Below are positions 48,758-64,000 of a DNA stretch of 64,000 bases, piece after piece. The translations under genes and the position numbers were made by a program. The stretch spans positions 62,001-126,000 of the forward strand of contig NZ_QOHF01000013.1 in the NCBI RefSeq assembly GCF_003319115.1, in the 5' to 3' direction. The DNA comes from Geodermatophilus sp. TF02-6 (lineage in GTDB: Bacteria > Actinomycetota > Actinomycetes > Mycobacteriales > Geodermatophilaceae). Every line of letters starts with the position of its first letter. The stretch's first letter is position 1. The notes beneath the pieces are model-generated. The model saw only the letters and a list, made by a program, of their open reading frames with translations, did no database searches and was not told the origin of the DNA.

Positions 48758-48893
48758 AGTACTGGTACGGACGCGTTCCGCCACCCGGACGGACGAGGTC
48801 CCCCGCCGCGGCGGCCTAGCATCGGGCGGGGAGCGGGCTCGTGAGCTTCCCGGACGGTTGAGGGGCCTCCGCGAGCGCCGACGAGGAGGATGC

Positions 48894-50165: not shown

Positions 50166-50842
50166 ACCGAGTGCTGGTCGTGGAGGACGAGGAGTCCTTC
50201 TCCGACGCGCTGTCCTACATGCTGCGCAGGGAGGGCTTCGACCCCGTCGTCGCGGCCAGCGGCCCGGAGGCGCTGGACGAGTTCGACCGCGGTGGCGCCG
50301 ACATCGTCCTGCTCGACCTCATGCTGCCCGGGCTGCCCGGGACCGAGGTGTGCCGCGCCCTGCGCGCCCGCAGCGCGGTGCCGATCATCATGCTCACGGC
50401 CAAGGACGCCGAGATCGACAAGGTCGTCGGGCTCGAGCTGGGCGCCGACGACTACGTCACCAAGCCGTACTCGGCCCGCGAGCTGGTCGCCCGGATCCGG
50501 GCCGTGCTGCGCCGCCGCGGGCACACCGAGGCGCCGGCCGGGTCGGTGCTGGCGGCCGGCCGGGTCCGCATGGACGTCGACCGGCACGTGGTCTCCGTCG
50601 ACGGCGAGCCCGTCGCCCTGCCGCTCAAGGAGTTCGACCTGCTCGAACTGCTGCTGCGCAATGCCGGCCGGGTGCTCACCCGCGGGCAGCTCATCGACCG
50701 GGTGTGGGGCGCGGACTACGTGGGTGACACCAAGACCCTCGACGTCCACGTCAAGCGGCTGCGGGCCAAGATCGAGCCCGACCCGGCCAACCCCGAGCAC
50801 CTGGTGACGGTGCGCGGCCTCGGCTACAAGTTCGAGGCCTGA
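50162..50842 (+). CDS. regX3: Phosphate response regulator RegX3
   Basis: 226-residue OmpR-family regulator: acidic pair VVEDEE, phosphoacceptor D52 in IVLLDLMLPG, KPYSARELVARI, and winged helix LPLKEFDLLELLLRNAGRVL with KTLDVHVKRLRAKIE and TVRGLGYKFE. Expected to bind PHO boxes such as the one upstream of pstS and possibly the site near 48729. Coupled to senX3 by a GTGA overlap and followed by a short hairpin. Confidence 0.95.
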   Translation: MNRVLVVEDEESFSDALSYMLRREGFDPVVAASGPEALDEFDRGGADIVLLDLMLPGLPGTEVCRALRARSAVPIIMLTAKDAEIDKVVGLELGADDYVTKPYSARELVARIRAVLRRRGHTEAPAGSVLAAGRVRMDVDRHVVSVDGEPVALPLKEFDLLELLLRNAGRVLTRGQLIDRVWGADYVGDTKTLDVHVKRLRAKIEPDPANPEHLVTVRGLGYKFEA

Positions 50843-50906: not shown

Positions 50907-52577
50907 TCAGCCGCCGAGCGTCGCGCCCCGCCCCAGCGGCGACACCGTCCGCGCGTAGACGTCCAGCCACCCGCACCCGCGGGGAGCCGGCAGCGGGGGC
51001 AGCTCGGCGCGGCGCCGCTCGAGCTCCTCGGCCGGCACCTGCAGCTCCAGGGTGCGCGCGTCGACGTCCACCGAGACCAGGTCGCCGTCGCGGACCAGCC
51101 CGATCGGGCCGCCGACCGCGCCCTCGGGGCTGACCTCCGCGACGACCAGGCCCTTGTTGACCAGGCCGGACATCTGCCCGTCGGTGACGACGACGACCTC
51201 GTCCCCCAGCCCGGCGCCGTCGAGGGCGAAGACGACCGCCGAGGTCAGCGCCATGCCGGGCGAGCCGCGCAGGCCGAGGCCGCTGAGGACGACGACGTCG
51301 CCGGCGCTCACCTCGCCCGCCCGGATGCCGGCCAGACCCTCCTCGCGGGAGGAGTAGACCCTCGCCGGGCCGGTGAACCGGTGCAGCCCGTCGTCGGCCA
51401 CGGTGCGCTTGACGACCCCACCCTCGGGCGCCAGCGAGCCGCGGACGACGGTGATGCCGGGGTGGCGGGCCAGCGGGTCCTCCACCGGCCGGATCACCCG
51501 GGCGTCACCGACCGACGCGCCGCCCAGGACCTCCCCCAGGGTGCGGCCGTCCACGGTGGGCTGGTCGAGGTCGAGCAGCGACCGCAGCTGGTGGAGCAGC
51601 GCCCGGGCCCCGCCGGCGGCCTCGAACTCGTCGATCCGCCGTGCCCCGTTGGGCTTCACGCCGGTGATCAGCGGGACCTGGGGCGCGAGCTGCTCGAACA
51701 GCGCCAGGACATCGACGTCGCAGCCGGCCTCGACCGCGACCGCCTGCAGGTGCTTGACGCAGTTGACCGACCCGCTGATCGCCAGGACGGCGGTCACCGC
51801 GTTGCCGAACGCGCCCGGCGTCATGACCTGCCGCGGGCGCAGGTTCTCGGCGACCAGCTCGACGATCCGGCGCCCCGCCCGCTCGGCGTCGGCGAACATC
51901 TTCGGGCTGTTGGCCAGCACCGGGGTGGTGCCGGACAGTGCCATGCCGAGCGCCTCGGTGGCGATGTGCATGGAGTTCGCCGTCCCCATGCCCGCGCACA
52001 CGCCCGGGCCGCCGACCGCCACGCTGGCCATCTCGGTCAGCTCCTCGACGGTCATGGCACCGGTGGCGACGTGGCCGGCGTAGAGGAAGACGTCCTCGAA
52101 GTCGACGTGCTCGCCTCGGTAGACGCCGCTGGGCTGGTATCCGCAGCCGACGACGATCGTCGGGACGTCCAGCCGGCCGGCGGCCATGAGCTGGCCCGGG
52201 GTGGTCTTGTCGCAGGAGGCCAGGGTGACCATCCCGTCGAGCAGGGCCCCCTCGACGGCGACCTCGATGTCGCTGGCGATGAGGTCGCGGGTGGGCAGGA
52301 TGTACTGCCCGGCCCGGCCGGCGCTGGTGATGGCGTCGCTGGAGGCGGCCGTGCGGACCTCGAACGGCACACCCCCGGCCGCGCGGATCGCCTGCTCCAG
52401 GCGGGGCACGATGCCGTCGAGGTGGCTGAAGCAGCTGGCCAGCTTCGAGGAGCTGTTGACGATGGCGATCTTGGGCTTGTCCATGTCCTCGTCGGACAGG
52501 CCGAGCGCGGTCCACTGCGCCCGGCGCATCGCCCAGGGGGTGCTGCCGGGGGTGGAGTTGCTGCGCAGCGTGCTCAC
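50907..52577 (-). CDS. IlvD/Edd-family dehydratase (module A)
   Basis: 556-residue Fe-S dehydratase. The three cysteines expected to hold the cluster are C49 (SKLASCFSHLDG), C122 (ASCDKTTPG) and C194 (GPGVCAGMGTANSM); VVVTDGQMSGL and GSPGMALTS are also present. The family dehydrates dihydroxy or sugar acids to 2-keto acids. Differences from biosynthetic IlvD (for example SSSKLASC in place of the WTEVTPC-type segment) and the context indicate a catabolic substrate. GTG 52577 overlaps the stop of the FAD gene. A paralogue lies at 58453. Confidence 0.85.
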   Translation of the reverse strand: MSTLRSNSTPGSTPWAMRRAQWTALGLSDEDMDKPKIAIVNSSSKLASCFSHLDGIVPRLEQAIRAAGGVPFEVRTAASSDAITSAGRAGQYILPTRDLIASDIEVAVEGALLDGMVTLASCDKTTPGQLMAAGRLDVPTIVVGCGYQPSGVYRGEHVDFEDVFLYAGHVATGAMTVEELTEMASVAVGGPGVCAGMGTANSMHIATEALGMALSGTTPVLANSPKMFADAERAGRRIVELVAENLRPRQVMTPGAFGNAVTAVLAISGSVNCVKHLQAVAVEAGCDVDVLALFEQLAPQVPLITGVKPNGARRIDEFEAAGGARALLHQLRSLLDLDQPTVDGRTLGEVLGGASVGDARVIRPVEDPLARHPGITVVRGSLAPEGGVVKRTVADDGLHRFTGPARVYSSREEGLAGIRAGEVSAGDVVVLSGLGLRGSPGMALTSAVVFALDGAGLGDEVVVVTDGQMSGLVNKGLVVAEVSPEGAVGGPIGLVRDGDLVSVDVDARTLELQVPAEELERRRAELPPLPAPRGCGWLDVYARTVSPLGRGATLGG

Positions 52578-53929
52578 CGCTCCTCCTCGCGACCCAGGAA
52601 CACCCCGCCCTGCTCCAGCCGGCGCTGCAGCTCGGTGACCGGCACGTCCCCGACGGCCAGGTCGCCGGCGATGGCGAGGTCCGCGGCCTGGCCCACGGCT
52701 TCGCCCATCGCGAAGCAGGGGCCGGTGACCCGGGCCGAGGACTGGCCGCCCTGCGTCATGGAGGCGCAGCGCCCGGCGACGAACAGGTTGTCCACCCGCT
52801 GCGGCACCAGCATGCCGTAGGGCAGCTGGTTGTAGCCGCGCGGCCGGCGCTGCCAGCGGAACTCCACGGTGCCGGCGACGTGGGCCTCGACCGGCCAGCC
52901 GTTGACGCCGATCGCGTCGTCGAAGTCCGCGCAGTCGAGGACGTCGTCCTCGGTGAGCCGGTACTCGCCGTGCACCCGGCGGGTCTCGCGGATGCCGACC
53001 TGCGGGGCGATGTCGACGATGTAGGAGTCCCCGAAGCCCGGCGTCCGGTGCTTGATGAAGTCGAAGGCGTCGAAGGCCTGTCGGCGGCCCTGCAGCTCCC
53101 CGTGGGTGAGCTGGTCGACGTCGGTGCCGTCGACCGCGCTGCCGTCGGGGTTCGACAGCTGGGTGAGGTTGGCCCGCCACTCCAGCGGGTTGCGCTGCGG
53201 GCGCACGATCGGCTTCTTGCGGGGGAAGGTGTGCGTACCGGCCGCCTCGGCCTCGGTCATCAGCCGCTCGACCGTCCGCCACGGCGCGGGCCCGGCGGCG
53301 GCGACGTCCACCCCGTTGATCCGGAACATCAGCGACGGGTACAGCAGGTGCGGCGCCTTCTCGAACGGCACCCCGGCCCAGGCGGCGACGTCGGCGTCCC
53401 CCGAGGCGTCGACGAAGACCCGGCCGCGGACGGCGGCGCGGCCGGACTTGGACTCGATGAGGACCGCCTCGATCGTGGCCCTGTCGTCGGTCGCGCTGTC
53501 GGCCATGACGACGCCGACGGCGACCGCGTGGAACAGCAGCCGGGCGCCGGAGGCGGTGACCAGCTCGTCGGCGGCCAGCTTGTAGCAGGAGATGTCGAAG
53601 GCCTGGGCGAGGATGCCGTCGTTGATGGTCAGGTGCGGCTCGTTGAGCCCGTCGAGCTTGGCCAGCCGCTCGAGCAGCTCGTCGGCCAGGCCGTGGATCA
53701 CCTGGCGGTGCTCGCCGTGCACCTTGGCGTGCAGCCCGCAGAAGGTGGACAGCCCGCCCATCGTGCCGGCGCCGCCGAGGAAGCCGTAGCGCTCGAGCAG
53801 GATCGTCGAGCGGCCGGCGCGCGCGGCGGCGGCCGCGGCCGTGATCCCGGCCGGGCCGCCGCCGATGACGACGACGTCGAACTCTCCGTGGACCGGGGTG
53901 TCCCGGGCGGGCTCGTGCACGGTGCTCAT
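52574..53929 (-). CDS. FAD-dependent oxidoreductase (module A)
   Basis: 451-residue flavoprotein of the FAD_oxidored type. N-terminal dinucleotide-binding VVVIGGGPAGITAAAAAARAG (glycines at 23-28), LLERYGFLGGAGTMGGLSTF, internal GRVFVDASGDADVAAWAG and C-terminal LFVAGRCASMTQGGQSSARV. No signal peptide. Clearly paralogous to the protein at 60168 (both contain FCGLHA-x-VHGEHRQVIHG and NPLEWRAN). Predicted to oxidise an intermediate linked to the dehydratase; substrate unknown. Confidence 0.85.
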   Translation of the reverse strand: MSTVHEPARDTPVHGEFDVVVIGGGPAGITAAAAAARAGRSTILLERYGFLGGAGTMGGLSTFCGLHAKVHGEHRQVIHGLADELLERLAKLDGLNEPHLTINDGILAQAFDISCYKLAADELVTASGARLLFHAVAVGVVMADSATDDRATIEAVLIESKSGRAAVRGRVFVDASGDADVAAWAGVPFEKAPHLLYPSLMFRINGVDVAAAGPAPWRTVERLMTEAEAAGTHTFPRKKPIVRPQRNPLEWRANLTQLSNPDGSAVDGTDVDQLTHGELQGRRQAFDAFDFIKHRTPGFGDSYIVDIAPQVGIRETRRVHGEYRLTEDDVLDCADFDDAIGVNGWPVEAHVAGTVEFRWQRRPRGYNQLPYGMLVPQRVDNLFVAGRCASMTQGGQSSARVTGPCFAMGEAVGQAADLAIAGDLAVGDVPVTELQRRLEQGGVFLGREEER

Positions 53930-53987
53930 GCCGGGGTCCCCGCGGCGTCGTGGAGCGGAGCGACGTCGGGGGTGGCGTGGGGTCGGC

Positions 53988-55160
53988 TCATCGGGTGCTC
54001 CCCTGGGTCGGCGCGTCCTCGACGCGGGCGATGGCCGGGGCGCCACCCCGGGGGCCGAAGGTCTCGGCGACGGCGGAGACGCCGGCGTTGTGGGCGCCGG
54101 CGACGGTGACGAGGAGGGCCTCGGGCGAGTTGAGCACCGAGACGACGTCGCGCCCCTCCTCCGCGGCGGTGTCCGGCACCGCGTCGGGGTGGCCGGCCGG
54201 CACCCGCCAGCGGGTCTCCCGCGAGACGAGGTCCTTGCCGACCCGGGCCAGCTGCTCGCGGGTGTTCACGGCGTGCTCGTGCACGAACCGCCGGACGTCG
54301 GTGCGCGACCAGCCGGCGCGGGCGAACACGTGCGCGTGCTCGGGCCCCAGGACCAGGCAGCCGCTGATCGTCTCGTGCACCAGCGCACCGGTGCGGGCCA
54401 GCGTGCCGGCGAGGTCGCGGCCGAGCTGCTCGGGGTCGGTGGTGTGCCGCGCCTCGAGGTGGACCACCGAGCGGATCAGCATCGCGGTCACCGTGCTCTC
54501 ACCGGCGGCGAAGCCGTGGTCGGTGGGGAACGGCGCCCAGGGGCTGTCCTCCTCGTTCTCGGCGATGCAGCAGGTGTACTTGGCCGGCGTCCCCTGGGTG
54601 GCCTGGTCCAGCTGGTGCGGGTGCAGGCCGAAGGCGTTGATGGCGGTGAGCCGGATGGCGCGGCCGATGCTGGCGTTGGCCCGGACGCCGGAGCCGAACA
54701 CGTTGCCGCGGCCGTTGAGCCCGATCCGCTGCCGCACCGGCCCGTTGACCAACAGCAGCGGCGCGGTTCCCGTCGTGCTCTGCCAGATCCCCCGGCCGGC
54801 GTAGCCCTCCAGGGTCAGCGCGTCCCAGGCGGCCAGCACCACCGGGAAGTACTCGGGCAGGCAGCCGGCCATCGCGGCGTTGACGGCCGCGGCGCGGACC
54901 GTGCAGACCCGGTCGAGGTGCGGCATGCGCAAGACGACGTCCCCCGGCGCCCGCGAGGTCCGGGCGAGGAACTCGGCGAGGTAGGACTCGGTCACGGGCA
55001 CGACCGGCAGGCCGTCGGTCCAGCCCTGCTGGGCGTAGTACTCCACGACCCGACGGAGGGCCGCCATGTCCACCATCGGCCGGCCAGCGGCGTCGGTGGG
55101 CACTCCGGGCGTGCCGTCGACCGGCGCCGCGCCGTCCCTCGCGTCGAGCTGACCGCCCAC
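53988..55160 (-). CDS. Uncharacterised TDGLP-type protein
   Basis: 390-residue soluble protein. It carries WTDGLPVVPVTESYLAEFL (TDGLPVVP at 48-55), VNAAMAGCLPEYFPVVLAA, APLLLVNGPVRQRIGLNG, NVFGSGVRANASIGRAIRL and YTCCIAENEEDSPWAPF. From memory this layout is shared by hypothetical proteins sometimes annotated near UGSC-family (seleno)proteins; no reaction is known to me. There is no in-frame TGA within the gene. GTG 55160 follows AGGAGG; the ATG at 55232 would add 24 residues. First gene of the minus-strand module A. Confidence 0.65.
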   Translation of the reverse strand: MGGQLDARDGAAPVDGTPGVPTDAAGRPMVDMAALRRVVEYYAQQGWTDGLPVVPVTESYLAEFLARTSRAPGDVVLRMPHLDRVCTVRAAAVNAAMAGCLPEYFPVVLAAWDALTLEGYAGRGIWQSTTGTAPLLLVNGPVRQRIGLNGRGNVFGSGVRANASIGRAIRLTAINAFGLHPHQLDQATQGTPAKYTCCIAENEEDSPWAPFPTDHGFAAGESTVTAMLIRSVVHLEARHTTDPEQLGRDLAGTLARTGALVHETISGCLVLGPEHAHVFARAGWSRTDVRRFVHEHAVNTREQLARVGKDLVSRETRWRVPAGHPDAVPDTAAEEGRDVVSVLNSPEALLVTVAGAHNAGVSAVAETFGPRGGAPAIARVEDAPTQGSTR

Positions 55161-55198
55161 GCTTCCTCCTGCCGGCGTGCGACCCCATCGTCGGTGAT

Positions 55199-55234
55199 GT
55201 GCGACATCCGCACGGTTGCACTCTGTGCGCACAG
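55199..55234. promoter_or_regulatory. Two palindromes, candidate regulator operators
   Basis: GTGCG-ACATC-CGCAC (55199-55213) and the perfect CTGTGCGCACAG (55223-55234), centred 22-23 bp apart, about two helical turns. Their place in the divergent promoter region suggests binding of the IclR regulator encoded at 63310 or another dimeric factor. Confidence 0.55.
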
Positions 55235-55334
55235 GACGGTACCCGGCGGTGGGGGCCGGGTCGAGGCCCTCGGGCCGAGGGTCACGATCCGGTCACGCTC
55301 CGCCGAGCGCCCGCCGCCGATCCGGAACCCGGCG

Positions 55335-55364
55335 TTGACACCCCTGTGACCGTCATCATAAGTT
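55335..55364 (+). promoter_or_regulatory. Promoter of the ABC-dehydratase operon
   Basis: TTGACA (55335-55340) and ATAAGT (55358-55363) with a 17-bp spacer, in an unusually AT-rich patch. Drives the plus-strand operon starting at 55529, leaving a leader of about 155 bases. Confidence 0.6.
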
Positions 55365-55528
55365 CGCAAAGAGCACGGGTGATCGCATGCCGCACAAGCC
55401 CGGTGCCGCCGGCCAGCTCGCCGGTGCACCGGGCCCACCGCCCGACCGGTGCCGCACCGCCGGAGGTGGCCGGAGCCGGACGCCTCCACCACGACCCCGC
55501 CGGCCCGTCCGAGTCCGAGGAGGACCCG

Positions 55529-56629
55529 ATGACCTGCACCCCCACCCGTCCGTCCGGTGCAGCACCACGTCGCCGCCCGCGCTGGCGGGCCGCGCTCGCG
55601 GCGGCCAGCGCGGCGACCCTGCTGGCCGCCTGCGGCGGCGGGGACGACGCGGCCGGCAGCAGCAGCAGCGGGGGCAGCGAGGGTGGCGGCGGCGCGCTGC
55701 AGGACGTGACCTTCCTCAACATCCTCCCGCTGGAGAGCCTCACCTTCACCCCGGAGCTGGTGGCCAAGTCCTGCGGCTACTTCGAGGACCACGGCCTGAA
55801 CGTGACCTTCGAGACCACCCAGGGGTCGGCCCCCGCGATCCAGACCGTGCTCGCCGGTGGTGCGCTGATCACCCGCGTCGGCGACATGGAGACGATGCTG
55901 GCCGCCGGTGAGCGGGACGCGCCGCTGGTCAACGTCGGCCAGATCAACAAGACGGGCACCATCCGCTTCGTCTCGGCGAAGTCCGACCCGCTGCAGTCGC
56001 CGCAGGACATCGAGGGCCGGCTGATGGGCACCCCGTCGGAGGGCGGCACCAGCGAGATCATCCTCAAGCTGGTCGCGGCCACCGCCGGCATCGCGCCGGA
56101 CGACGTCCAGACCCAGGTGGTCGGCGTCGCCCCCGGCGTCTTCGACCTGGTGACCTCCGGCCGGATCGGCGGCTACATCGTCTCGCTCGACACCTCGGTC
56201 GCCCTCGCCGCGCAGCAGCCGGACGCGGTGGTCTACAACCCGTCGGACGCCGTCCGGAGCGGCGGGCAGGTGTACGTGACCAGCCAGGACCAGGCCGACG
56301 ACCCGGACAAGCAGGAGCAGCTGCGCAACTACCTGGCCGCCGTCAAGGAGGCCGTGCAGTTCGTGGCGCAGGACCAGGCCGGCGGCTACGCCGAGACCAA
56401 GAAGTGCCTGGCCGACTACGACATCCCGACCCTCAAGGACGAGGCGGTCGCGAACGCCGCGCTGGACCAGTACGTCGAGTCGTGGACCGCGGCCGGCGAC
56501 GACCAGATCGCCCGCACCGTGCCCGAGCAGTGGCAGGCCGTCTACGACGAGATGTCGGGCTCCGGCTTCGTCCCGAAGGGCCTGGACCCGGCCGAGTGGT
56601 ACACGAACGACTACGCGCCGGGGTCCTGA
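55529..56629 (+). CDS. ABC transporter substrate-binding lipoprotein (NMT1/SsuA-like)
   Basis: 366 residues. Signal peptide with a twin basic region and lipobox (LLAACGGG), then a Ser/Gly linker and an NMT1-type binding domain: FLNILPLESLTFTPELVAKS, QGSAPAIQTVLAGGALITRVG, PSEGGTSEIILKLVAATAGI. Such receptors bind sulfonates, pyrimidine precursors or aromatic and small organic acids. ATG 55529 follows GAGGAGG. First gene of an operon with ATPase, permease and four catabolic enzymes. Confidence 0.87.
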   Translation: MTCTPTRPSGAAPRRRPRWRAALAAASAATLLAACGGGDDAAGSSSSGGSEGGGGALQDVTFLNILPLESLTFTPELVAKSCGYFEDHGLNVTFETTQGSAPAIQTVLAGGALITRVGDMETMLAAGERDAPLVNVGQINKTGTIRFVSAKSDPLQSPQDIEGRLMGTPSEGGTSEIILKLVAATAGIAPDDVQTQVVGVAPGVFDLVTSGRIGGYIVSLDTSVALAAQQPDAVVYNPSDAVRSGGQVYVTSQDQADDPDKQEQLRNYLAAVKEAVQFVAQDQAGGYAETKKCLADYDIPTLKDEAVANAALDQYVESWTAAGDDQIARTVPEQWQAVYDEMSGSGFVPKGLDPAEWYTNDYAPGS

Positions 56630-56742
56630 TGACGCGCCCCCCGGCCGGTGCCGGACCCGGATCACCCACCCACGTCGGTGCCACCCCCTCCGGGGTGCCG
56701 GCAGCAGAGAACGGACGTCCCGCGGACCACGGGGAGGACGGC

Positions 56743-57582
56743 ATGACCATCTCGGAACCGGACGTCGCCGTGCGACCGGGCGCCGTGCCCGCAACGGAGG
56801 GCCGCCCGGCCCAGCTGGAGGTCACGGGCGTCGACAAGGTCTACCAGGCCCGCCGCGGCGAGGTGCACGCGCTCTCCAACGTGGACCTCTCCATCGGCAG
56901 GGGCGAGTTCATCTCCCTGGTCGGGCGGTCCGGGTGCGGGAAGACCACGCTGCTGCGCATCCTCGCCGGCCTGCTCGCGCCCAGCTCCGGCACGGTCACC
57001 GCCGACGGGGAGAGCACCTGGCGCGGCGGCAAGCGCAACGACGAGGCGTTCGCGCAGTTCGGCCTGGTCTTCCAGGACGCCAACCTGTTCCCCTGGTACA
57101 CGATCGCCGACAACATCGCGCTGCCCCTGAAGCTGCGCGGGGTCGCCAGGCGGGCCCGCCGGGCGCGCGCCGCGGAGCTGTGCGAGCTGGTCGGCCTGCC
57201 CGGGTTCGAGAACGCCTACCCGCGGGAGCTGTCCGGCGGCATGCGGCAGCGCGCGGCGATCGCCCGGGCGCTGAGCTACGACCCGAAGATCCTGCTCATG
57301 GACGAGCCGTTCGGGGCCCTGGACGCGCTGACCCGCGACCGGATGAACCTGGAACTGCAGACGATCCACGCGCAGGCCGGCGCGACCGTCGTCTTCGTGA
57401 CCCACTCGATCAACGAGGCGGTCTTCCTGGCCGACCGGGTCGTGCTGCTCACCCCGCGGCCGGGGCGGATCCGCTCGATCACCCCGGTGCCCGTCGCCCG
57501 CCCGCGCTCGCTGGAGACCGAGACCACCACCGAGTTCCAGACCGTCGTCCGCCGGCTCCGCCACGAACTGGACGAGGAGTGA
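56743..57582 (+). CDS. ABC transporter ATP-binding protein (SsuB/TauB type)
   Basis: 279-residue ATPase with Walker A GRSGCGKTT, Q-loop VFQDANLFPWYTIADNI, signature LSGGMRQRAAIARAL, Walker B ILLMDEPFGALDAL and H-loop THSINEA. Typical of nitrate/sulfonate/taurine importers. The ATG at 56743 with GGGGAGG five bases upstream is preferred over the in-frame ATG at 56629, which would add a 38-residue Pro/Gly-rich head overlapping the previous stop. Confidence 0.9.
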   Translation: MTISEPDVAVRPGAVPATEGRPAQLEVTGVDKVYQARRGEVHALSNVDLSIGRGEFISLVGRSGCGKTTLLRILAGLLAPSSGTVTADGESTWRGGKRNDEAFAQFGLVFQDANLFPWYTIADNIALPLKLRGVARRARRARAAELCELVGLPGFENAYPRELSGGMRQRAAIARALSYDPKILLMDEPFGALDALTRDRMNLELQTIHAQAGATVVFVTHSINEAVFLADRVVLLTPRPGRIRSITPVPVARPRSLETETTTEFQTVVRRLRHELDEE

Positions 57583-57589
57583 CCCGCCC

Positions 57590-58456
57590 ATGACCACGCT
57601 CGACCGCCGCACCGGGACCACCCCGCCGGCCGGGGGCAGCACGCCGGCCCGCCGGGAGAAGGCCCCCGGCGAGCGGGACGGCCTGATGAGGGCCCTGCCG
57701 CTGATCTCCACGCCGGTCCTGCTCCTGCTGCTCATCGGCGGCTGGCAGTTCACCGTCTCGGTCATCGGCGTCTCGCAGTTCATCCTGCCCGCGCCGCTGG
57801 ACGTCTGGCGCTCCCTGGTCGACCTGCTCACCGGCGGGACCATCTGGCGCGACGTCTGGATCACCCTCTACGAGGTCCTGCTCGGCTTCGTCATCGCCGT
57901 CGTGGTCGGCACGGTGGCCGGCGCCGTCCTCGGCCGGGTGGTCTGGCTGGAGCGGGCCCTGCAACCGGCGCTCGTGGCCCTGCAGGTGATCCCGAAGGTC
58001 GCCTTCATCCCGATCTTCGTCATCTGGTTCGGCTTCGGGACGACGTCCAAGGTCATCATGGCCGCGATCCTGGCCTTCTTCCCGATCATGCTGAACGTGA
58101 TGCTGGGCGTCCGGTCGGTGGACCGCGGGCACCGCGACGTGATGCGCGGCCTGGGCGCCAGCCGCTGGGCTACGTTCCGCGACCTGGAGCTGCCCAGCAC
58201 GCTGCCCTACATCTTCGCCGGCGCCGAGGTGGGCATCGTCTTCGCCGTCATCGGCGCGATCGTCGGCGAGTACCTGGGCGGCAGCGAGGGCCTGGGGCAC
58301 CTGGTGGTCCGCAGCCTCAACGCCCTCGACGCGCCGCAGCTGTTCGCGGTCATCGTGCTGCTGGCGATCATGGGGTCCCTGCTCTACGCGGCGGTGACCC
58401 TGACCAAGCGGCTGCTCATCCCGTGGCACGACTCGGTCTCCGGGGTCAGCCCGTGA
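57590..58456 (+). CDS. ABC transporter permease (SsuC/TauC type)
   Basis: 288-residue permease with about six helices after a 35-residue polar head. The first helix is LISTPVLLLLLIGGW; the PAPLDVWRSLVDLL motif is typical of this class, and the EAA loop is HRDVMRGLGASRWATF. Pairs with the ATPase 7 bp upstream. Its stop overlaps the start of the dehydratase gene (GTGA), tying import to catabolism. Confidence 0.9.
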   Translation: MTTLDRRTGTTPPAGGSTPARREKAPGERDGLMRALPLISTPVLLLLLIGGWQFTVSVIGVSQFILPAPLDVWRSLVDLLTGGTIWRDVWITLYEVLLGFVIAVVVGTVAGAVLGRVVWLERALQPALVALQVIPKVAFIPIFVIWFGFGTTSKVIMAAILAFFPIMLNVMLGVRSVDRGHRDVMRGLGASRWATFRDLELPSTLPYIFAGAEVGIVFAVIGAIVGEYLGGSEGLGHLVVRSLNALDAPQLFAVIVLLAIMGSLLYAAVTLTKRLLIPWHDSVSGVSP

Positions 58457-60171
58457 CCGACGGCGGGCCGCGGCTGCGCAGCAACCTGCAGGAGGGCAGC
58501 TCCCGCTGGGCCGTCCGCCGGGCGCAGTGGCGGGCGCTGGGCATCTCCGACGAGGACATGCGCAAGCCCAAGGTCGCGATCGTCAACTCGTCGTCGGACC
58601 TGGCGATCTGCTTCAGCCACCTGGACGGGATCGTCGCGCCGCTCAAGGAGGCGATCCGGGCCGCCGGCGGCCTGCCGTTCGAGGTCCGGACGGCGGCCCC
58701 GAGCGACTTCATCACCTCCGCCGGCCGGGACGGGCGCTACATCCTGCCCAGCCGCGACCTGATCGTGAACGACGTCGAGGTCGCCGTGGAGGGCGCCCAG
58801 CTCGACGGGATGGTCACCCTCGCCTCGTGCGACAAGACCGCGCCGGCGCACCTCATGGCCGCCGGCCGGCTGGACATCCCGACGATCGTCGTCGGCTGCG
58901 GCTACCAGCCCAGCGGCGACCACCGCGGGGAGCACGTCGACATCGAGGAGGTCTTCCTGGCCGCCGGCTCCGTGGCCGCCGGCCGGATGAGCCTCGAGCA
59001 GCTGTGCGGCATGAGCGACAACGCCATCCGCGGGCCCGGTGTCTGCGCCGGCCTCGGCACCGCGAACACCATGCACACGGCCTGCGAGGCCCTGGGCATG
59101 TCGCTGTCGGGCACCACCCCGGTGCTGGCCAACGGCCCGGCCATGTGGGACGCCGTCCGCCGTGCCGGCGCCCGCATCGTCGACCTGGTCACCGAGGGCC
59201 GGCGCCCGCGCGAGGTCATGACCGCCGGCGCCTTCCGCAACGCGGTCACGGTGATGCTGGCGATCAGCGCCTCGGTGAACTCGATCAAGCACCTGCAGGC
59301 CGTGGCGCACGAGGCGGCGGTCGACGTCGACGTCCCCGGCCTGTTCGCCGAGCTCGCCGACCGGGTGCCGCTGCTGTGCGCGGTCCGTCCGAACGGCCCG
59401 CACTCCATCGAGGACCTGGAGCGGGCCGGCGGCACCCGCGCCGTCCTCGTCCAGCTGCGCGACCTGCTCGACCTCGACGTCCCCACCGTGGACGGCGGCA
59501 CGCTCGGCGAGGTGCTGGCGGGCGCCACCGTGGCCGACGAGGAGGTGGTCCGCCCCGCGGACCGCCCGTTCGGGACCCGGCCGACGATCGTGGTCGTCCG
59601 CGGGTCGCTGGCCCCCGGCGGCGCTGTGGTGAAACGGCCGGTGGACGACCGCGGCGCGCGCCGCTTCGAGGGCACGGCGCTGTGCTACTCGACCCGCGAC
59701 GAGGCGCTGGCCGGACTGCAGCGCGGCGAGGTCGGCCCCGGCACGGTGCTGGTCGTCCGCGGCCTCGGCGTCGTCGGCGGGCCCGGCATGGCGCTGGGCT
59801 CGGCGGTGGTCTTCGCGCTGGAGGGCGCCGGCCTGGGCGACAGCGTCGCGGTGGTCACCGACGGGCAGATGTCCGGGTTGGTCAACGTGGGCACCGTCGT
59901 CGGCGAGGTGACGCCGGAGGCGGCGCTGGGCGGGCCGCTGGCCCTGGTGGAGGACGGCGACCGGATCGTCATCGACGTCGACCGGCGCACCGTCGACCTC
60001 GAGGTGCCCGACGACGTCCTGGCCGCCCGCCGCGAGCGGCTGGGCAGCACCGACCTGGGCCCGGACCACGGCTGGCTGTCGGCCTACCGCCGGCTGGTCT
60101 CCCCCGTCCCCGAGGGCGCGGTGCTCACCGCCCCCGCCCCGGGCCGTGCGCCTGCCGAGGAGACGACGTGA
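58453..60171 (+). CDS. IlvD/Edd-family dehydratase (module B)
   Basis: 572-residue paralogue of the protein at 50907. Putative cluster cysteines C53 (SDLAICFSHLDG), C126 (ASCDKTAPAH) and C198 (GPGVCAGLGTANTM) are conserved and the segment between them has the same length. The last 25 residues (PEGAVLTAPAPGRAPAEETT) extend beyond module A. Differences between the paralogues, such as CDKTAPAH versus CDKTTPGQ, suggest related but distinct substrates. Coupled to the permease and the following FAD gene by GTGA overlaps. Confidence 0.87.
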   Translation: MTDGGPRLRSNLQEGSSRWAVRRAQWRALGISDEDMRKPKVAIVNSSSDLAICFSHLDGIVAPLKEAIRAAGGLPFEVRTAAPSDFITSAGRDGRYILPSRDLIVNDVEVAVEGAQLDGMVTLASCDKTAPAHLMAAGRLDIPTIVVGCGYQPSGDHRGEHVDIEEVFLAAGSVAAGRMSLEQLCGMSDNAIRGPGVCAGLGTANTMHTACEALGMSLSGTTPVLANGPAMWDAVRRAGARIVDLVTEGRRPREVMTAGAFRNAVTVMLAISASVNSIKHLQAVAHEAAVDVDVPGLFAELADRVPLLCAVRPNGPHSIEDLERAGGTRAVLVQLRDLLDLDVPTVDGGTLGEVLAGATVADEEVVRPADRPFGTRPTIVVVRGSLAPGGAVVKRPVDDRGARRFEGTALCYSTRDEALAGLQRGEVGPGTVLVVRGLGVVGGPGMALGSAVVFALEGAGLGDSVAVVTDGQMSGLVNVGTVVGEVTPEAALGGPLALVEDGDRIVIDVDRRTVDLEVPDDVLAARRERLGSTDLGPDHGWLSAYRRLVSPVPEGAVLTAPAPGRAPAEETT

Positions 60172-61514
60172 CCTGGATCGAGGAGCCGGGACGGCGCACC
60201 GCCGTCCTCGGCGAGTACGAGGTCGTCGTGGTCGGCGGCGGCCCGGCCGGGGTCATGGCCGCGGCCGCCGCCGCCCGCGCCGGCCGCTCGACGATCCTGG
60301 TCGAGCGCAACGGCTACACCGGCGGCGCGGGCAGCGCCGGCGGGCTGTCCACGTTCTGCGGGCTGCACGCCAACGTGCACGGCGAGCACCGCCAGGTGAT
60401 CCACGGCCTGGCCGACGAGCTGCTGGCGCGGATGGCCGCGCTCGACGGGCTGAACGAGCCGCACCTGAGCTTCGCCGACCGGATCCTCGCCCAGGCCTAC
60501 GACATCAGCGCCTACAAGATCGCCCTCGACGACCTGCTGGTCGGGTCCGGCGTGACGCTGCTGTTCCACGCCCTCGCCGTCGGCGTGGTCATGGCCGACG
60601 AGTCCACCGTCGACGCGCTGCTGGTGGAGTCCAAGTCGGGCCGCGGCGCGATCCGCGGCCGGGTGTTCGTCGACGGCTCCGGCGACGGCGACCTCGCCGC
60701 GTGGGCCGGGGCGCCGTACGAGAAGACCGACCCGGGGCACGGGATGCTCTACCCGTCACTGATGTTCCGCATCAACGGCGTGGACGCCGGGGCCGCCGCG
60801 GCGACCCACGACCGGCTGTCCGGCCTCATGGAGGACGCCGAGCGCGCCGGCCGGTTCACCTTCCCGCGCAAGCGCCCGATCGTGCGGCCCCAGCGCAACC
60901 CGCTGGAGTGGCGGGCCAACATCACCCAGCTGCGCAACCCCGACGGCAGCGCGATCGACGGCACCGACGTGTGGCAGCTGACCCGCGGCGAGCTGCAGGG
61001 CCGCCGGCAGGTCCGCGACGTCTTCCCGTTCTACCGGCAGGAGGTGCCCGGCTTCGCGGCCGCCTACGTCGTCGACATCGCGCCGGACATCGGCATCCGG
61101 GAGACCCGCCGGATCGTCGGCGCCCACCAGCTCACCCAGGACGACATCCTCGACTGCGCCGACTTCCCCGACGCGATCGGCGTCAACGGCTGGCCGGTCG
61201 AGGCCCACGTCGCCGGCGACGTCGAGATCCGCTGGCAGCGCCGGCCGCGCGGCTACAACCAGCTGCCGTTTCGCATGATCGTCCCGCAAGTGCTGTCCAA
61301 CACCTACGTGGTGGGCCGGTGCGCCTCGATGACCCACGAGGGCCAGTCCAGCGCCCGGGTCAGCGGGCCCTGCTTCGCGATGGGCCAGGCCGCCGGCACC
61401 GCCGCCGACCTCGCCCTCTCCGCCGGGGTGGCGGTCGGGGACGTCGACGTCGCCAAGCTGCAGGCCCGCCTCGAGGAGGACGGCGCCTGGCTCGGCGGGG
61501 AGGGCGGGCGATGA
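60168..61514 (+). CDS. FAD-dependent oxidoreductase (module B)
   Basis: 448-residue paralogue of the flavoprotein at 52574: VVVVGGGPAGVMAAAAAARAG, LVERNGYTGGAGSAGGLSTF, NPLEWRANITQLRNPDGSAI, YVVDIAPDIGIRETRR and YVVGRCASMTHEGQSSARV. Long identical stretches show a recent common origin, yet the middle (HDRLSGLMEDAERAG) and C-terminus have diverged. It overlaps the aconitase X large subunit gene (ATGA), so its product probably feeds into or follows that reaction. Confidence 0.85.
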   Translation: MTWIEEPGRRTAVLGEYEVVVVGGGPAGVMAAAAAARAGRSTILVERNGYTGGAGSAGGLSTFCGLHANVHGEHRQVIHGLADELLARMAALDGLNEPHLSFADRILAQAYDISAYKIALDDLLVGSGVTLLFHALAVGVVMADESTVDALLVESKSGRGAIRGRVFVDGSGDGDLAAWAGAPYEKTDPGHGMLYPSLMFRINGVDAGAAAATHDRLSGLMEDAERAGRFTFPRKRPIVRPQRNPLEWRANITQLRNPDGSAIDGTDVWQLTRGELQGRRQVRDVFPFYRQEVPGFAAAYVVDIAPDIGIRETRRIVGAHQLTQDDILDCADFPDAIGVNGWPVEAHVAGDVEIRWQRRPRGYNQLPFRMIVPQVLSNTYVVGRCASMTHEGQSSARVSGPCFAMGQAAGTAADLALSAGVAVGDVDVAKLQARLEEDGAWLGGEGGR

Positions 61515-62794
61515 GGCTGACCGACGACGAGCGGGTGATGCTCGACGGCGAGCAGGGCGAGGCGGTCGCCGCCGCGATGGACCTGCTGGTCCGCTACGGC
61601 GAGGTGCTCGGCGCCGAGCGGCTGGTCGACACCGACAACGTGTGCGGAGCCAACCTCTTCGGATCCCGGCACAGCCTGGTCTGCGGCTCCCCCACCCCGG
61701 ACGCCGCCTTCTCCGAGCACAGCCTCGACGCGCCCACCGTGCTGACCATCCCCCCGGTGCGCGCGCAGAGCTACCAGCTCATCGGGCCGATGGACACCAA
61801 GCACTGGCAGGTGCAGGGGCTGCCGCAGGCCGAGCACGACGAGATCATCGCCAGCGAGCGGTACAACGCCGAGCACGGCATCCACCTGCTCACCACCTGC
61901 ACCCCGTACCAGGTGGGCAACGTCCCGCTCAAGGGCGAGCACTGCGCCTGGATGGAGAGCTCGGCGGTCGTCTACGTCAACTCCGTGCTCGGCGCGCGCA
62001 CCAACGTGGAGGGCCGGGAGAGCACGGGCGCGGCCATGCTCACCGGCAAGATCCCCTACTGGGGCCTGCACCTGGAGGAGAACCGGCACGGCTCGCACCT
62101 GGTCGAGGTGACCACGCCGGTCGAGAGCAACCGGGACTGGGGGCTGCTCGGCTACTGGATCGGCGAGCAGGTGCCGGAGGAGGCCATCCCGGTGGTCGAC
62201 GGGATCACCGCCACCACGCCCGACCTGGTCCGGCTCAAGCACTTCGGCGCCGCGGCCGCGTCCTCGGGGGGCGTGGAGCTCTACCACGTCCCGGGCGTCA
62301 CGGCGGAGGCGCGCACCGTCGAGGAGGCGCTCGCCGGGCGGACGCCGGTCGAGCGGCTGACCTACGGTCCGGCGCAGCGCCGGGAGGCGTACGAGCACCT
62401 GAACGCCACGGCCACGGACACCTCGGTCGACCTGGTGATGATCGGCTGCCCGCACGCGACGCTCGGGCAGATCCGCGACGTCGTCCGGCTGCTCGAGGGC
62501 CGCCGGGTGCACCCGGACACCGAGCTGTGGGTCTTCACCCCCCGCGCGTTGCGGCACGTCGCCGAGCGCAACGGGTACGACCGGGCGCTCGCCGACGCCG
62601 GCGCGCTGCTGATGAGCGACACCTGTCCGGCGATCGGCCGGTTCCTGCCGAAGGGGACCCGGGTCATCGCCACCGACTCGGCCAAGCAGGTGCACTACCT
62701 GCCGGCGATCATGGACGTGCAGGGCCGGTTCGGCACCCTCGCCGAGTGCGTGGACGCCGCGGTGACCGGCACCTGGCGGGGGGAGGTCCCGTGA
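61511..62794 (+). CDS. Aconitase X large (catalytic) subunit
   Basis: 427-residue AcnX-family hydro-lyase. Candidate iron-sulfur cysteines are C130 (LLTTCTPYQVGN), the one in MIGCPHATLGQI and the one in MSDTCPAIGRF; NSVLGARTNVEGRES and KIPYWGLHLEENRHG are further family segments. Known AcnX enzymes include phosphomevalonate dehydratase (archaea) and cis-3-hydroxy-L-proline dehydratase (bacteria); the neighbours here fit neither pathway clearly. The small swivelling subunit is a separate gene directly downstream. Confidence 0.87.
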   Translation: MRLTDDERVMLDGEQGEAVAAAMDLLVRYGEVLGAERLVDTDNVCGANLFGSRHSLVCGSPTPDAAFSEHSLDAPTVLTIPPVRAQSYQLIGPMDTKHWQVQGLPQAEHDEIIASERYNAEHGIHLLTTCTPYQVGNVPLKGEHCAWMESSAVVYVNSVLGARTNVEGRESTGAAMLTGKIPYWGLHLEENRHGSHLVEVTTPVESNRDWGLLGYWIGEQVPEEAIPVVDGITATTPDLVRLKHFGAAAASSGGVELYHVPGVTAEARTVEEALAGRTPVERLTYGPAQRREAYEHLNATATDTSVDLVMIGCPHATLGQIRDVVRLLEGRRVHPDTELWVFTPRALRHVAERNGYDRALADAGALLMSDTCPAIGRFLPKGTRVIATDSAKQVHYLPAIMDVQGRFGTLAECVDAAVTGTWRGEVP

Positions 62795-63210
62795 GCCAGG
62801 TCGTGCTCACCGGTCGCGGACTGGTCGGCGGCGTCGCCGAGGGGGAGGCGCTGGTCACCCGCGAGGCGATCTCCGGCTGGGGCGGGGTCGAGCCCCGCGA
62901 GGGCCGGGTGATCGAGTCGCGGCACGAGCTGGTCGGGCAGTCCTTCGCCGGCAAGGTGCTGGTCTTCCGCGGCGCCAAGGGCTCCTCGGGCTGGTCGGGG
63001 GTGTTCCACCTGACCCGGCTGATGGGTTCGGCGCCCGCGGCGATGGTGTTCACCACGATGAACACCAAGATCGCGCTCGGGGTCGTGGTGACCCACGTGC
63101 CGGCGGTGACCGACCTCGACGGCGACCCGTTCGAGCTCATCCGCACCGGTGACCGGGTGCGGGTGGACGCCGACCGCGGGCAGGTCATCGTCACCCCGGC
63201 GGGCGGGTAG
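62791..63210 (+). CDS. Aconitase X small (swivel) subunit
   Basis: 139-residue beta-rich domain matching the AcnX swivel subunit: VVLTGRGLVGGVAEGEALVT, GWGGVEPREGRVIESRHEL and the catalytic-side loop GKVLVFRGAKGSSGWSG. It completes the active site of the large subunit. GTG 62791 overlaps the large-subunit stop (GTGA) and follows GGGGAGG. Last gene of the operon; a long inverted repeat follows its stop codon. Confidence 0.87.
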   Translation: MSQVVLTGRGLVGGVAEGEALVTREAISGWGGVEPREGRVIESRHELVGQSFAGKVLVFRGAKGSSGWSGVFHLTRLMGSAPAAMVFTTMNTKIALGVVVTHVPAVTDLDGDPFELIRTGDRVRVDADRGQVIVTPAGG

Positions 63211-63260
63211 CGTCGTCGGCACCCGTCCCCGGCGCACGCACGGACGGGGATCGACGACGC
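63210..63260. terminator. Composite inverted repeat between aconitase X and IclR genes
   Basis: Outer arms GCGTCGTCG (63210-63218) and CGACGACGC (63252-63260); inner arms CCCGTCC (63222-63228) and GGACGGG (63242-63248); symmetric 3-base internal loops and a 13-base apex. It could be the operon terminator or an autoregulatory site for the IclR gene. Confidence 0.65.
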
Positions 63261-63309
63261 AGACGGACGTCGCGGCGCAGCGCCGCGACGGCGCGGAGGA
63301 GCTGGACCA

Positions 63310-64000
63310 CTGACCGAACCCGAGGCCGTGCCCGACGACGAGGGCGCCGGGGACGTCGGCGCCGTCCGCCAGCGCGGCGACTACTTCGTGCAGTCCCTGG
63401 AGCGCGGGCTGGCCGTGATCAAGGCCTTCACCGCCGAGGAGCCGGAGCTGACCCTCAGCGACATCGCCCGCCGCACCGGGATGACCCGCGCGGCGGCCCG
63501 CCGCTTCGTGCTGACGCTGGTCGACCTGGGGTACGTCGGCACCACCGACCGGCGGTTCCACCTGCGCCCGACCGTCCTGGAGCTCGGCTACACGTACCTG
63601 TCGCTGCTGTCCTTCCCGCAGGTGGCCACCCCGCACCTGACCGCGCTGTCCGAGCGGCTCAACGAGACGACCAGCGTCGCCGTCCTCGACGGGGACGACA
63701 TCGTCTACGTCGCGCGGGTGGGCCCGCGCCGCGTCATCTCCAGCGGGCTGACCGTCGGCACCAGGCTGCCGGCCTTCGTCACCTCCCACGGCCGCGTCCA
63801 GCTCGCCGCGCTGCCCGACGACCGGCTGGACGCCTACCTGACCCGCGCCCGCCTCGAGCCGCGCACCGCGCGGACGACGACCGACCCGGTCAAGCTGCGC
63901 GACCGGCTGCTGGAGGTGCGCGCCCAGGGCTTCGCGCTGGTCGACCAGGAGCTGGAGGAGGGCGTGACCTCGATCGCCGTCCCGGTCCGCGACGCCTCGG
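63310..64000 (+). CDS. IclR-family transcriptional regulator (PcaR/PobR-like), partial, probable CTG start
   Basis: 230 codons are visible; the gene continues beyond the window. N-terminal winged helix-turn-helix: DYFVQSLERGLAVIKAF, LTLSDIARRTGMTRAAARRF; the effector domain has YLSLLSFPQVATPHL, DGDDIVYVARVGPRR and GTRLPAFVTSHGRV. IclR proteins control aromatic and organic-acid catabolism. Reading from CTG 63310, nine bases after GGAGGAG, gives the natural-looking MTEPEAVPDDE; the first conventional in-frame start, GTG 63328, has no good ribosome binding site. Probable regulator of the adjacent dehydratase operon. Confidence 0.83.
   Translation, partial: MTEPEAVPDDEGAGDVGAVRQRGDYFVQSLERGLAVIKAFTAEEPELTLSDIARRTGMTRAAARRFVLTLVDLGYVGTTDRRFHLRPTVLELGYTYLSLLSFPQVATPHLTALSERLNETTSVAVLDGDDIVYVARVGPRRVISSGLTVGTRLPAFVTSHGRVQLAALPDDRLDAYLTRARLEPRTARTTTDPVKLRDRLLEVRAQGFALVDQELEEGVTSIAVPVRDAS

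What the first reader, a model, noticed from the sequence alone, without database searches (positions are those of the whole stretch)
50907..64000. Unassigned catabolic locus: duplicated dehydratase-flavoprotein modules with aconitase X
Two divergent modules share paralogous IlvD/Edd dehydratase and FAD oxidoreductase genes. Module B adds an SsuABC-like importer and two-subunit aconitase X; module A adds a TDGLP-type protein. Three dehydratase systems from two Fe-S families plus two flavoproteins do not match any pathway I know (cis-3-hydroxyproline and mevalonate routes lack this set). Continuous stop/start overlaps in module B imply one imported compound processed by all enzymes. This is the best candidate here for an undescribed system.
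Basis: partly seen in the sequence, partly recalled or inferred. Interest (0 to 1): 0.8.

Follow-up and report, generated by a model that had tools for sequence, protein, structure and literature searches.

The report
Conserved unassigned hydroxy-acid degradation gene cluster
A soil bacterium carries a set of import, oxidation and dehydration genes that recurs side by side in four bacterial phyla but fits no pathway I could find described, next to a gene for a selenium-containing protein of unknown function.

Summary
In detail: two divergent modules share paralogous IlvD-type dehydratases (66%) and FAD oxidoreductases (69%); module B adds an importer and two-subunit AcnX in overlapping genes. 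It is not chance. Of 80 loci found by AcnX similarity alone, 79 carry a FAD oxidoreductase and 60 an IlvD; their AcnX form one group from four phyla. Controls have neither: 0 of 19 distant AcnX loci, 0 of 26 UGSC loci. AcnX keeps aconitase-type cysteines in 82 of 82 but fails the hydroxyproline-dehydratase model; module-type IlvD have their own motif (63 of 63). My reading: a CoA-free catabolic module for an imported hydroxy-carboxylate. Substrate and order of steps are not shown. Just past the window (64152-67421) lies a third module: UGSC protein with in-frame TAG, second TDGLP protein, CoA ligase. TDGLP sits beside UGSC in 20 of 20 UGSC loci fetched and is fused to it in four others, so module A's TDGLP is an orphan partner of a (seleno)protein. 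UAG-selenocysteine in this bacterial family is published; the module was in no paper listed by eight open-access searches.

The parts
50907..52577 (-). Module A IlvD/Edd-type dehydratase (GTG start)
   Evidence: PF00920 320.3 bits, PF24877 180 bits; DHAD models below cut-off (493.9 of 644; 467.4 of 618.15); motif TDGQMSGLV
52574..53929 (-). Module A FAD-dependent oxidoreductase
   Evidence: PF12831 363.6 bits; 69% to module B copy; 4-nt overlap with IlvD
53988..55232 (-). Module A TDGLP protein, no Pfam or NCBIfam match; paralogue of the UGSC partner at 65813-66880
   Evidence: 0 families; 62% to the second copy; homologues beside UGSC in 20 of 20 UGSC loci fetched
55529..56629 (+). Module B ABC importer binding protein (lipoprotein-like start by eye; NMT1/THI5-like)
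   Evidence: PF09084 96.3 bits
56629..57582 (+). Module B ABC importer ATPase (start may lie further in)
   Evidence: PF00005 121.3 bits
57590..58456 (+). Module B ABC importer permease
   Evidence: PF00528 104.2 bits
58453..60171 (+). Module B IlvD/Edd-type dehydratase (GTG start)
   Evidence: PF00920 323.1 bits; DHAD models below cut-off; 66% to module A copy
60168..61514 (+). Module B FAD-dependent oxidoreductase
   Evidence: PF12831 374.8 bits
61511..62794 (+). Aconitase X large subunit
   Evidence: PF04412 377.9 bits; C130, C313, C372, E149, K392 present and invariant in 82 of 82 of its group
62791..63210 (+). Aconitase X small (swivel) subunit
   Evidence: PF01989 90.1 bits; KGSSG motif in 81 of 81 of its group
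63328..64000 (+). IclR-family regulator of PcaR/PcaU/PobR type, runs on to 64161 outside the window
   Evidence: TIGR02431 309.7 bits over cut-off 284.75; PF01614 146 bits

Best explanation
Module B is a self-contained, CoA-independent catabolic operon, a conserved kind found in four phyla, that imports a hydroxylated (probably poly-)carboxylic acid and turns it into a 2-oxo acid for central metabolism. Proposed steps: (1) ABC import; (2) the FAD oxidoreductase dehydrogenates the acid, as a flavin-linked desaturation or alcohol oxidation beside a carboxylate; (3) AcnX, with an aconitase-like [4Fe-4S] site, removes or adds water at a 3-hydroxy-carboxylate; (4) the IlvD-like [2Fe-2S] enzyme dehydrates the resulting 2,3-dihydroxy acid to a 2-oxo acid; (5) housekeeping enzymes finish. 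An IclR regulator controls it. Shown: gene set, conservation, overlapping reading frames, the Fe-S ligand residues, distinct subfamilies of AcnX and IlvD. Inferred: catabolic direction, nature of the substrate, cluster types, the reaction of each enzyme and their order. Module A is a diverged duplicate of the FAD-IlvD pair plus a TDGLP protein; with module C (UGSC selenoprotein, TDGLP, CoA ligase, 64152-67421) it probably feeds or branches from module B. That link is inferred.
For: 79 of 80 AcnX loci have a FAD gene (78 within 3 kb) and 60 of 80 an IlvD (49 within 3 kb); where at least 9 kb is held on both sides, 60 of 60 and 48 of 60. Loci were chosen by AcnX similarity only. Controls: 0 of 19 distant AcnX loci and 0 of 26 UGSC loci have either. 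AcnX group is one side of a branch, support 99, in four phyla. Compact sets of IlvD, FAD, one transporter and AcnX in Alicyclobacillus (L064, L065) and, with a LysR gene, in an actinobacterium (L043). Transporters vary but stay with it: TTT-type binding proteins (named by eye) in 36 of 82 loci, one MFS family in 13, porins, as expected if the imported molecule is the common factor. IclR or LysR-type (LysR by eye) regulators recur. AcnX Cys at three cluster sites in 82 of 82, sites as in PMC8184944 and PMC10040528. IlvD Fe-S Cys and Lys in 67 of 67; motif DG[QH]xSGL in 63 of 63 module-type rows with letters there (2 more are gapped), while the genome's two other IlvD copies read DGRFSGG and DGRMSG.
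Against: No substrate is identified, and I found no characterised enzyme of these subgroups. 20 of 80 loci show no IlvD in the stretch held, so IlvD may be dispensable or elsewhere in those genomes (not searched); one (L142) shows no FAD gene. In most proteobacterial and Bacillota loci, and in L043, the FAD protein is only about 26-32% identical to the window's, so the FAD reaction may not be the same. Only 1 of the 19 distant AcnX controls has 9 kb on both sides. Feeder genes differ (TfdA-type dioxygenase, GMC oxidoreductase, SDR, alpha/beta hydrolase, amidohydrolase, Rieske protein), so different compounds may converge or the substrate may differ by lineage.
Confidence: 0.6

Rival explanations
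1. It is a cis-3-hydroxy-L-proline (or other hydroxyproline) degradation cluster, AcnX being the dehydratase LhpI.
For: [quoted passage not shown] Two-subunit type IIa enzymes with this activity exist (PMC8184944, section 14 read).
Against: 244.5 bits against a cut-off of 700. The type I site-C cysteine is Ala or Ser in 82 of 82, while a site-1 Cys is present in 82 of 82 and absent in 18 of 21 distant or plasmid AcnX. No proline-type reductase or racemase is among the module genes named; IlvD and FAD have no role in that route as I know it.
Confidence: 0.06
2. It is part of a mevalonate route, AcnX being a phosphomevalonate dehydratase.
For: The three cluster cysteines match the archaeal phosphomevalonate dehydratase pattern (PMC8184944 and PMC10040528, passages read).
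Against: No mevalonate kinase or UbiD-type decarboxylase is among the module genes; IlvD, FAD oxidoreductase, importer and IclR/LysR regulators do not fit isoprenoid synthesis. The phosphate-binding residues could not be aligned, so this is not excluded at residue level.
Confidence: 0.04
3. Two or three separate systems merely lie next to each other: module B for one acid, module A for another, module C for a third.
For: FAD-IlvD pairs without AcnX in the stretch held occur on two plasmids, UGSC-TDGLP pairs occur without AcnX in 20 of 20 loci, and module B lies on the opposite strand to A and C.
Against: A and B share two paralogous genes, A and C a third; all three modules are syntenic in Blastococcus tunisiensis. 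UGSC-TDGLP genes are also linked to AcnX in L073, L092 and L140 and on Sporomusa and Vibrio plasmids.
Confidence: 0.25
4. The IlvD genes are extra copies for branched-chain amino acid synthesis or sugar-acid use.
For: Best family models are dihydroxy-acid dehydratases.
Against: Below every cut-off. The genome has another, higher-scoring IlvD on contig 42 at 38-39% identity, with the motif DGRFSGG, and a fourth copy on contig 23 at 36-37% with DGRMSG (a motif I recall from sugar-acid dehydratases).
Confidence: 0.05

Closest known systems
[quoted passage not shown]
   Same: Same superfamily and domains; conserved Glu, Lys, Tyr and Ser of the active site
   Different: Different Fe-S cysteine set, far below the family cut-off, different gene context
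Aconitase X type IIb, phosphomevalonate dehydratase
   Same: Two subunits and three cysteines at the same sites
   Different: Bacterial, in a catabolic-looking operon with FAD and IlvD enzymes; probably one of the types IIc-IIf that PMC8184944 leaves without a function (the assignment to one of these is my inference)
Dihydroxy-acid dehydratase and sugar-acid dehydratases (IlvD/Edd)
   Same: Both domains, three Fe-S cysteines, active-site Lys and Ser
   Different: 36-39% to the genome's own other copies; DG[QH]xSGL replaces DGRFSGG/DGRMSG; model scores below cut-offs
UGSC family (seleno)protein and glycine/proline reductase subunits (GrdB/PrdB)
   Same: UxxC motif, similar stretch after the selenocysteine; UGSC model met (158 bits, cut-off 125)
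   Different: Link to GrdB is weak (8.9 bits; best of 200 shuffles 1.8); partner TDGLP matched no family model
FAD-dependent tricarballylate dehydrogenase route (TcuA)
   Same: Idea of flavin dehydrogenation feeding an aconitase-type step (recalled, not tested)
   Different: TcuA model hits only the FAD-binding start at 20.9-27.4 bits against a cut-off of 369

Membership tests
[quoted passage not shown]
   244.5 bits large subunit, 75.1 bits small subunit; the model covers both subunits fused, so a split enzyme scores in two parts
[quoted passage not shown]
   Position 374 is Ala in 80 and Ser in 2 of 82; residue roles from PMC8184944 passages
[quoted passage not shown]
   They align to a variable stretch, residues 45-64 of the window protein
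Phosphomevalonate dehydratase (AcnX type IIb) | Cys at sites A, 1 and 2, with Glu and Lys | tested here: met
   C130, C313, C372, E149, K392 in 82 of 82
Phosphomevalonate dehydratase (AcnX type IIb) | Phosphate-binding residues 48-53 and Asn79 of the large subunit | tested here: inconclusive
   That stretch is not in the alignment returned
Dihydroxy-acid dehydratase (IlvD) | NCBIfam equivalog/subfamily cut-offs | tested here: not met
   A 493.9 and B 500.1 against 644; A 467.4 and B 460.4 against 618.15
Dihydroxy-acid dehydratase (IlvD) | Three Fe-S Cys and active-site Lys of the IlvD/Edd superfamily | tested here: met
   67 of 67 rows, including the two own-genome paralogues; that these are the ligands is recalled
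FAD_oxidored (PF12831) | Pfam cut-off 27 bits over the full model | tested here: met
   363.6 and 374.8 bits, positions 1-416 of 416
UGSC family (seleno)protein (module C, outside the window) | NF041046 cut-off and U/C-G-S-C motif | tested here: met
   158 bits, cut-off 125; TAG at the U position
Glycine/proline reductase (GrdB/PrdB) | Sequence homology around the Sec site | tested here: inconclusive
   8.9 bits versus 1.8 for the best of 200 shuffles; hhalign probability 22%; TrxB near only 3 of 28 UGSC/TDGLP loci
SsuABC sulfonate importer | TIGR01728 cut-off 163.5 bits | tested here: not met
   43.7 bits

The most novel reading that the evidence does not exclude
AcnX of this unassigned group, the FAD oxidoreductase and IlvD form an undescribed CoA-free route for a common plant or soil hydroxy-carboxylate, and the UGSC-TDGLP (seleno)enzyme is a working part of it: an alternative to, or a branch beside, the IlvD step. 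UGSC-TDGLP occurs with AcnX in 3 of the 20 loci without a visible IlvD but in 1 of 60 with one, and as a fusion it is the next gene after AcnX in one Burkholderiales operon (L092). In Blastococcus-like bacteria the step would depend on selenocysteine encoded by UAG. That would give a first pathway to the UGSC selenoprotein family.
Probability: 0.25. Interest if true: 0.8.

Novelty: new variant of a known kind. Interest (0 to 1): 0.55.

Why it matters
The three enzyme families together, conserved in four phyla, predict a carbon-use pathway whose genes are now named only by family. One solved substrate would help to annotate the at least 227 related AcnX stretches that one scan found, assign a function to one of the orphan AcnX types, and give the UGSC-TDGLP pair a testable pathway context: UGSC was the selenoprotein used most often in non-marine water samples (PMC2398784, passages) and a 2026 review still lists it among families whose functions remain largely uncharacterised (PMC13188914, passages).

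Tried and rejected
Substrate by homology: no solved relative for the FAD protein beyond its FAD motif; the binding protein matches only a putative exported protein and a pyrimidine-binding protein weakly; TDGLP matches nothing in the PDB by sequence. Structure: TDGLP model (mean pLDDT 66.2, pTM 0.71, 6 sequences) and a UGSC-TDGLP fusion model (mean pLDDT 65.8, pTM 0.57, 8 sequences) gave no Foldseek match at E<=0.001; VIA-align best Z for TDGLP 4.8, for the UGSC part 11.7 over 131 residues to 8s7v_H, a chain of a methyl-coenzyme M reductase activation complex, followed by B12-binding, receiver and GTPase-type chains. I conclude nothing about TDGLP's fold. The UGSC part looks like a common alpha/beta domain; PMC2398784 suggests a thioredoxin-like fold, which these low-confidence models neither show nor exclude.

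Glycine-reductase idea for UGSC-TDGLP: weak. TrxB lies near 3 of 28 loci, TrxA near 1, and the AcnX-linked fusions of Sporomusa and Vibrio have Met in place of Sec/Cys and Ser in place of the second Cys, so the usual redox pair cannot act there. Only one GrdB sequence was available; the 59-genome search found no other.

IlvD/UGSC exclusion: Fisher p = 0.046, chosen after seeing the data, uncorrected, and two of the three loci (L073, L092) are sisters in the tree; a hint only.

Hypotheses set aside for lack of gene evidence: tartrate, hydroxycitrate, quinate, 3,4-dihydroxyproline, ascorbate (thought through, not tested). A Variovorax FAD oxidoreductase from thiodipropionate work (PMC6370202; outline, abstract and passages seen) sits among CoA enzymes and the main text has no 'aconitase', so I do not take it for this module; its sequence was not compared.

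Literature: eight full-text searches of the open library on the module; two lists were cut (20 of 33 papers shown, 15 of 73). No listed title or abstract start joins AcnX with IlvD or a FAD oxidoreductase in a pathway. Two further searches were on UGSC and UAG. Subscription journals and preprints are not covered.


Full report
WHAT IS THERE. The window region 50907-64000 holds two divergent gene sets. Minus strand, module A: TDGLP protein, FAD oxidoreductase (PF12831), IlvD/Edd-type dehydratase. Plus strand, module B: NMT1-type binding protein, ATPase, permease, IlvD, FAD oxidoreductase, AcnX large, AcnX small, IclR-type regulator. FAD copies are 69% and IlvD copies 66% identical. Base-level check of the junctions: overlaps of 1 or 4 nt at five of six junctions in module B, and of 4 nt between FAD and IlvD in module A.

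PAST THE WINDOW. The contig continues (window = contig C4 from 62001). Right after the regulator, on the minus strand, lie an AMP-forming CoA ligase (64152-65816), a second TDGLP protein (65813-66880; 62% to module A's) and a UGSC-family protein (66884-67421) whose U position is an in-frame TAG. The genome has a tRNA-Sec with CUA anticodon (65.3 bits). In the same genome a second UGSC gene also has TAG and a third has TGC; in the other Actinomycetota genomes every UGSC match with a stop inside has TGA. Blastococcus tunisiensis has the same TAG. UAG-selenocysteine in Geodermatophilaceae, UGSC included, is published (PMC5330540, passages read), so this is not new; the link of the gene to this locus was not found in the papers listed. 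In folds of the 52 bases after the codon, a stem of at least five pairs with a three-base loop follows the stop-coded U in 15 of 19 UGSC genes and the Cys codon in 0 of 10 (two loci dropped).

IS IT MORE THAN CHANCE. Using the window's proteins plus four FAD and two TDGLP proteins taken from other loci, 79 of 80 loci have a FAD oxidoreductase (78 within 3 kb of AcnX), 60 of 80 an IlvD (49 within 3 kb) and 79 of 80 the small subunit; of 60 loci with at least 9 kb on both sides, 60 and 48. Controls with the same queries: 0 of 19 distant AcnX loci (only 1 of which has 9 kb on both sides) and 0 of 26 UGSC loci totalling 399,613 bases. The near AcnX form one side of a branch (82 of 102 rows, support 99; one short row left out) and come from Actinomycetota, Bacillota, Pseudomonadota and Acidobacteriota. 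In the window's own phylum the group seems rare: of 396 genomes sampled, 25 have an AcnX at E<=1e-20; the own genome and one other (54%) fall in the group, the other 23 have best matches of 32-40%, and loci of 19 matches from these were fetched, 18 of which lie outside the group in the tree.

WHAT SURROUNDS IT ELSEWHERE. Minimal sets (IlvD, FAD, one MFS transporter, AcnX) occur in Alicyclobacillus, and FAD, IlvD, MFS, AcnX behind a LysR gene in an actinobacterium. Transporters change with lineage: tripartite-tricarboxylate-type binding proteins in 36 of the 82 loci clustered, an MFS family in 13, NMT1/Ssu-type ABC importers in five actinomycetes, porins in the proteobacteria (OprD in four Pseudomonas). 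Cluster names rest on one representative each: Pfam for those, by eye for the binding proteins, LysR genes and actinomycete importers. Extra enzymes also change: TfdA/TauD-type dioxygenase in 7 loci (closest solved relatives are 2,4-D dioxygenases), GMC oxidoreductase in 5, one SDR family in 8, alpha/beta hydrolase in 3 actinomycetes, amidohydrolase in 3, Rieske protein in 3. The constant core is AcnX plus FAD, then IlvD. FAD-IlvD pairs without AcnX within the roughly 10 kb held on each side exist in Cupriavidus oxalaticus and Polaromonas JS666 plasmids, much like module A; of the other two FAD-bearing plasmids read, neither shows IlvD beside it.

RESIDUES. In the near AcnX group the cluster cysteines C130, C313 and C372 and E149, S150, S151, S390, K392 and Y396 are invariant in 82 of 82; in 21 distant or plasmid AcnX the site-1 position (313) is Thr in 17, Cys in 3 and Ala in 1. 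This is the cysteine pattern of the archaeal phosphomevalonate dehydratase, not of type I hydroxyproline dehydratase (PMC8184944: section 14 and passages; PMC10040528: passages). PMC8184944 says that types IIc to IIf have no landmark residue of either known function. The module-type IlvD proteins read DG[QH]xSGL at the conserved serine in 63 of 63 rows with letters there (2 rows gapped), against DGRFSGG and DGRMSG in the two other IlvD copies of the genome, to which the window's copies are 36-39% identical. So both dehydratases are distinct subfamilies.

TDGLP AND UGSC. TDGLP has no family model. It lies next to UGSC in 20 of 20 UGSC loci fetched (20 of the matches) and, by tblastn, in 6 of 8 plasmid loci inspected of 24 records. 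In L092 and L140 the two are one protein; in the other two plasmid loci (Sporomusa, Vibrio) a protein of about 574 or 561 residues carries both, with Met at the Sec position. An older paper reports UGSC fused to an 'Unknown_1' domain (PMC2398784, passages read); that this is TDGLP is my guess. AcnX and UGSC-TDGLP share a locus in Blastococcus (own genome and B. tunisiensis), L073 and L140 (each about 6 kb apart), L092 (next gene after the small subunit, about 0.3 kb), and on the Sporomusa and Vibrio plasmids, whose AcnX lie outside the near group. The three loci of the 80 outside Blastococcus that have UGSC-TDGLP show no IlvD in the stretch held. Against a general redox role: the Met variants, and TrxB near only 3 of 28 loci.

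HOW IT MOST LIKELY WORKS. See Best explanation. From chemistry of the families as I recall it: IlvD/Edd enzymes turn 2,3-dihydroxy acids into 2-oxo acids; PF12831 flavoproteins are dehydrogenase-like. That AcnX acts on 3-hydroxy-carboxylates follows from the two known substrates (PMC8184944). Together they make a CoA-free oxidation and dehydration sequence. The absence of a CoA ligase, kinase or aldolase from the minimal gene sets supports a short route to a central 2-oxo acid. The substrate is unknown; tricarboxylate- and acid-type transporters point to a carboxylate. Modules A and C are probably accessory.

VERDICT. Real, conserved, and as far as searched undescribed; made of known enzyme families in a new combination.

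Noticed in passing
outside the window, continued coordinates 66884-67421 (L003:884-1421 minus strand): UGSC-family gene with an in-frame TAG at the selenocysteine position; genome has a tRNA-Sec with CUA anticodon (contig 18) and a second TAG-bearing UGSC gene on contig 1 (132705-133211), plus a Cys version on contig 34.
   Followed up: yes
L092:11968-13617 plus strand and L140:2698-4374 minus strand: Single genes that fuse UGSC and TDGLP domains (Sec by TGA in L092, Cys in L140), showing that TDGLP is the partner of the UGSC (seleno)protein.
   Followed up: yes
L149:6320-8044 and L150:6335-8020 (Sporomusa termitida and Vibrio europaeus plasmids): UGSC-TDGLP fusions beside AcnX in which the Sec/Cys is replaced by Met and the second Cys by Ser, so these versions cannot use the usual redox pair.
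   Followed up: partly
L143:4686-6965 (Arthrobacter plasmid): UGSC-TDGLP genes follow thioredoxin reductase, thioredoxin, a gene annotated phosphosulfolactate synthase and an ABC importer; a gene with that annotation is also near the pair in Natrinema (L148:3856-4323). Possible sulfur-compound context.
   Followed up: no
L040:9875-12855 and L041:9890-12896: FAD_oxidored-IlvD pairs without AcnX in the stretch held on Cupriavidus oxalaticus and Polaromonas JS666 plasmids, the closest parallels to module A.
   Followed up: partly
L200 and L197 (UGSC loci of unnamed Actinomycetota): UGSC variants with the motif stop-GAC instead of stop-GSC at the selenocysteine site.
   Followed up: no
window 48858-50842: A sensor kinase and response regulator pair (histidine kinase-like and receiver/winged-helix reading frames) directly before module A, probably ordinary chromosomal genes; judged by eye from the translations only.
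   Followed up: no
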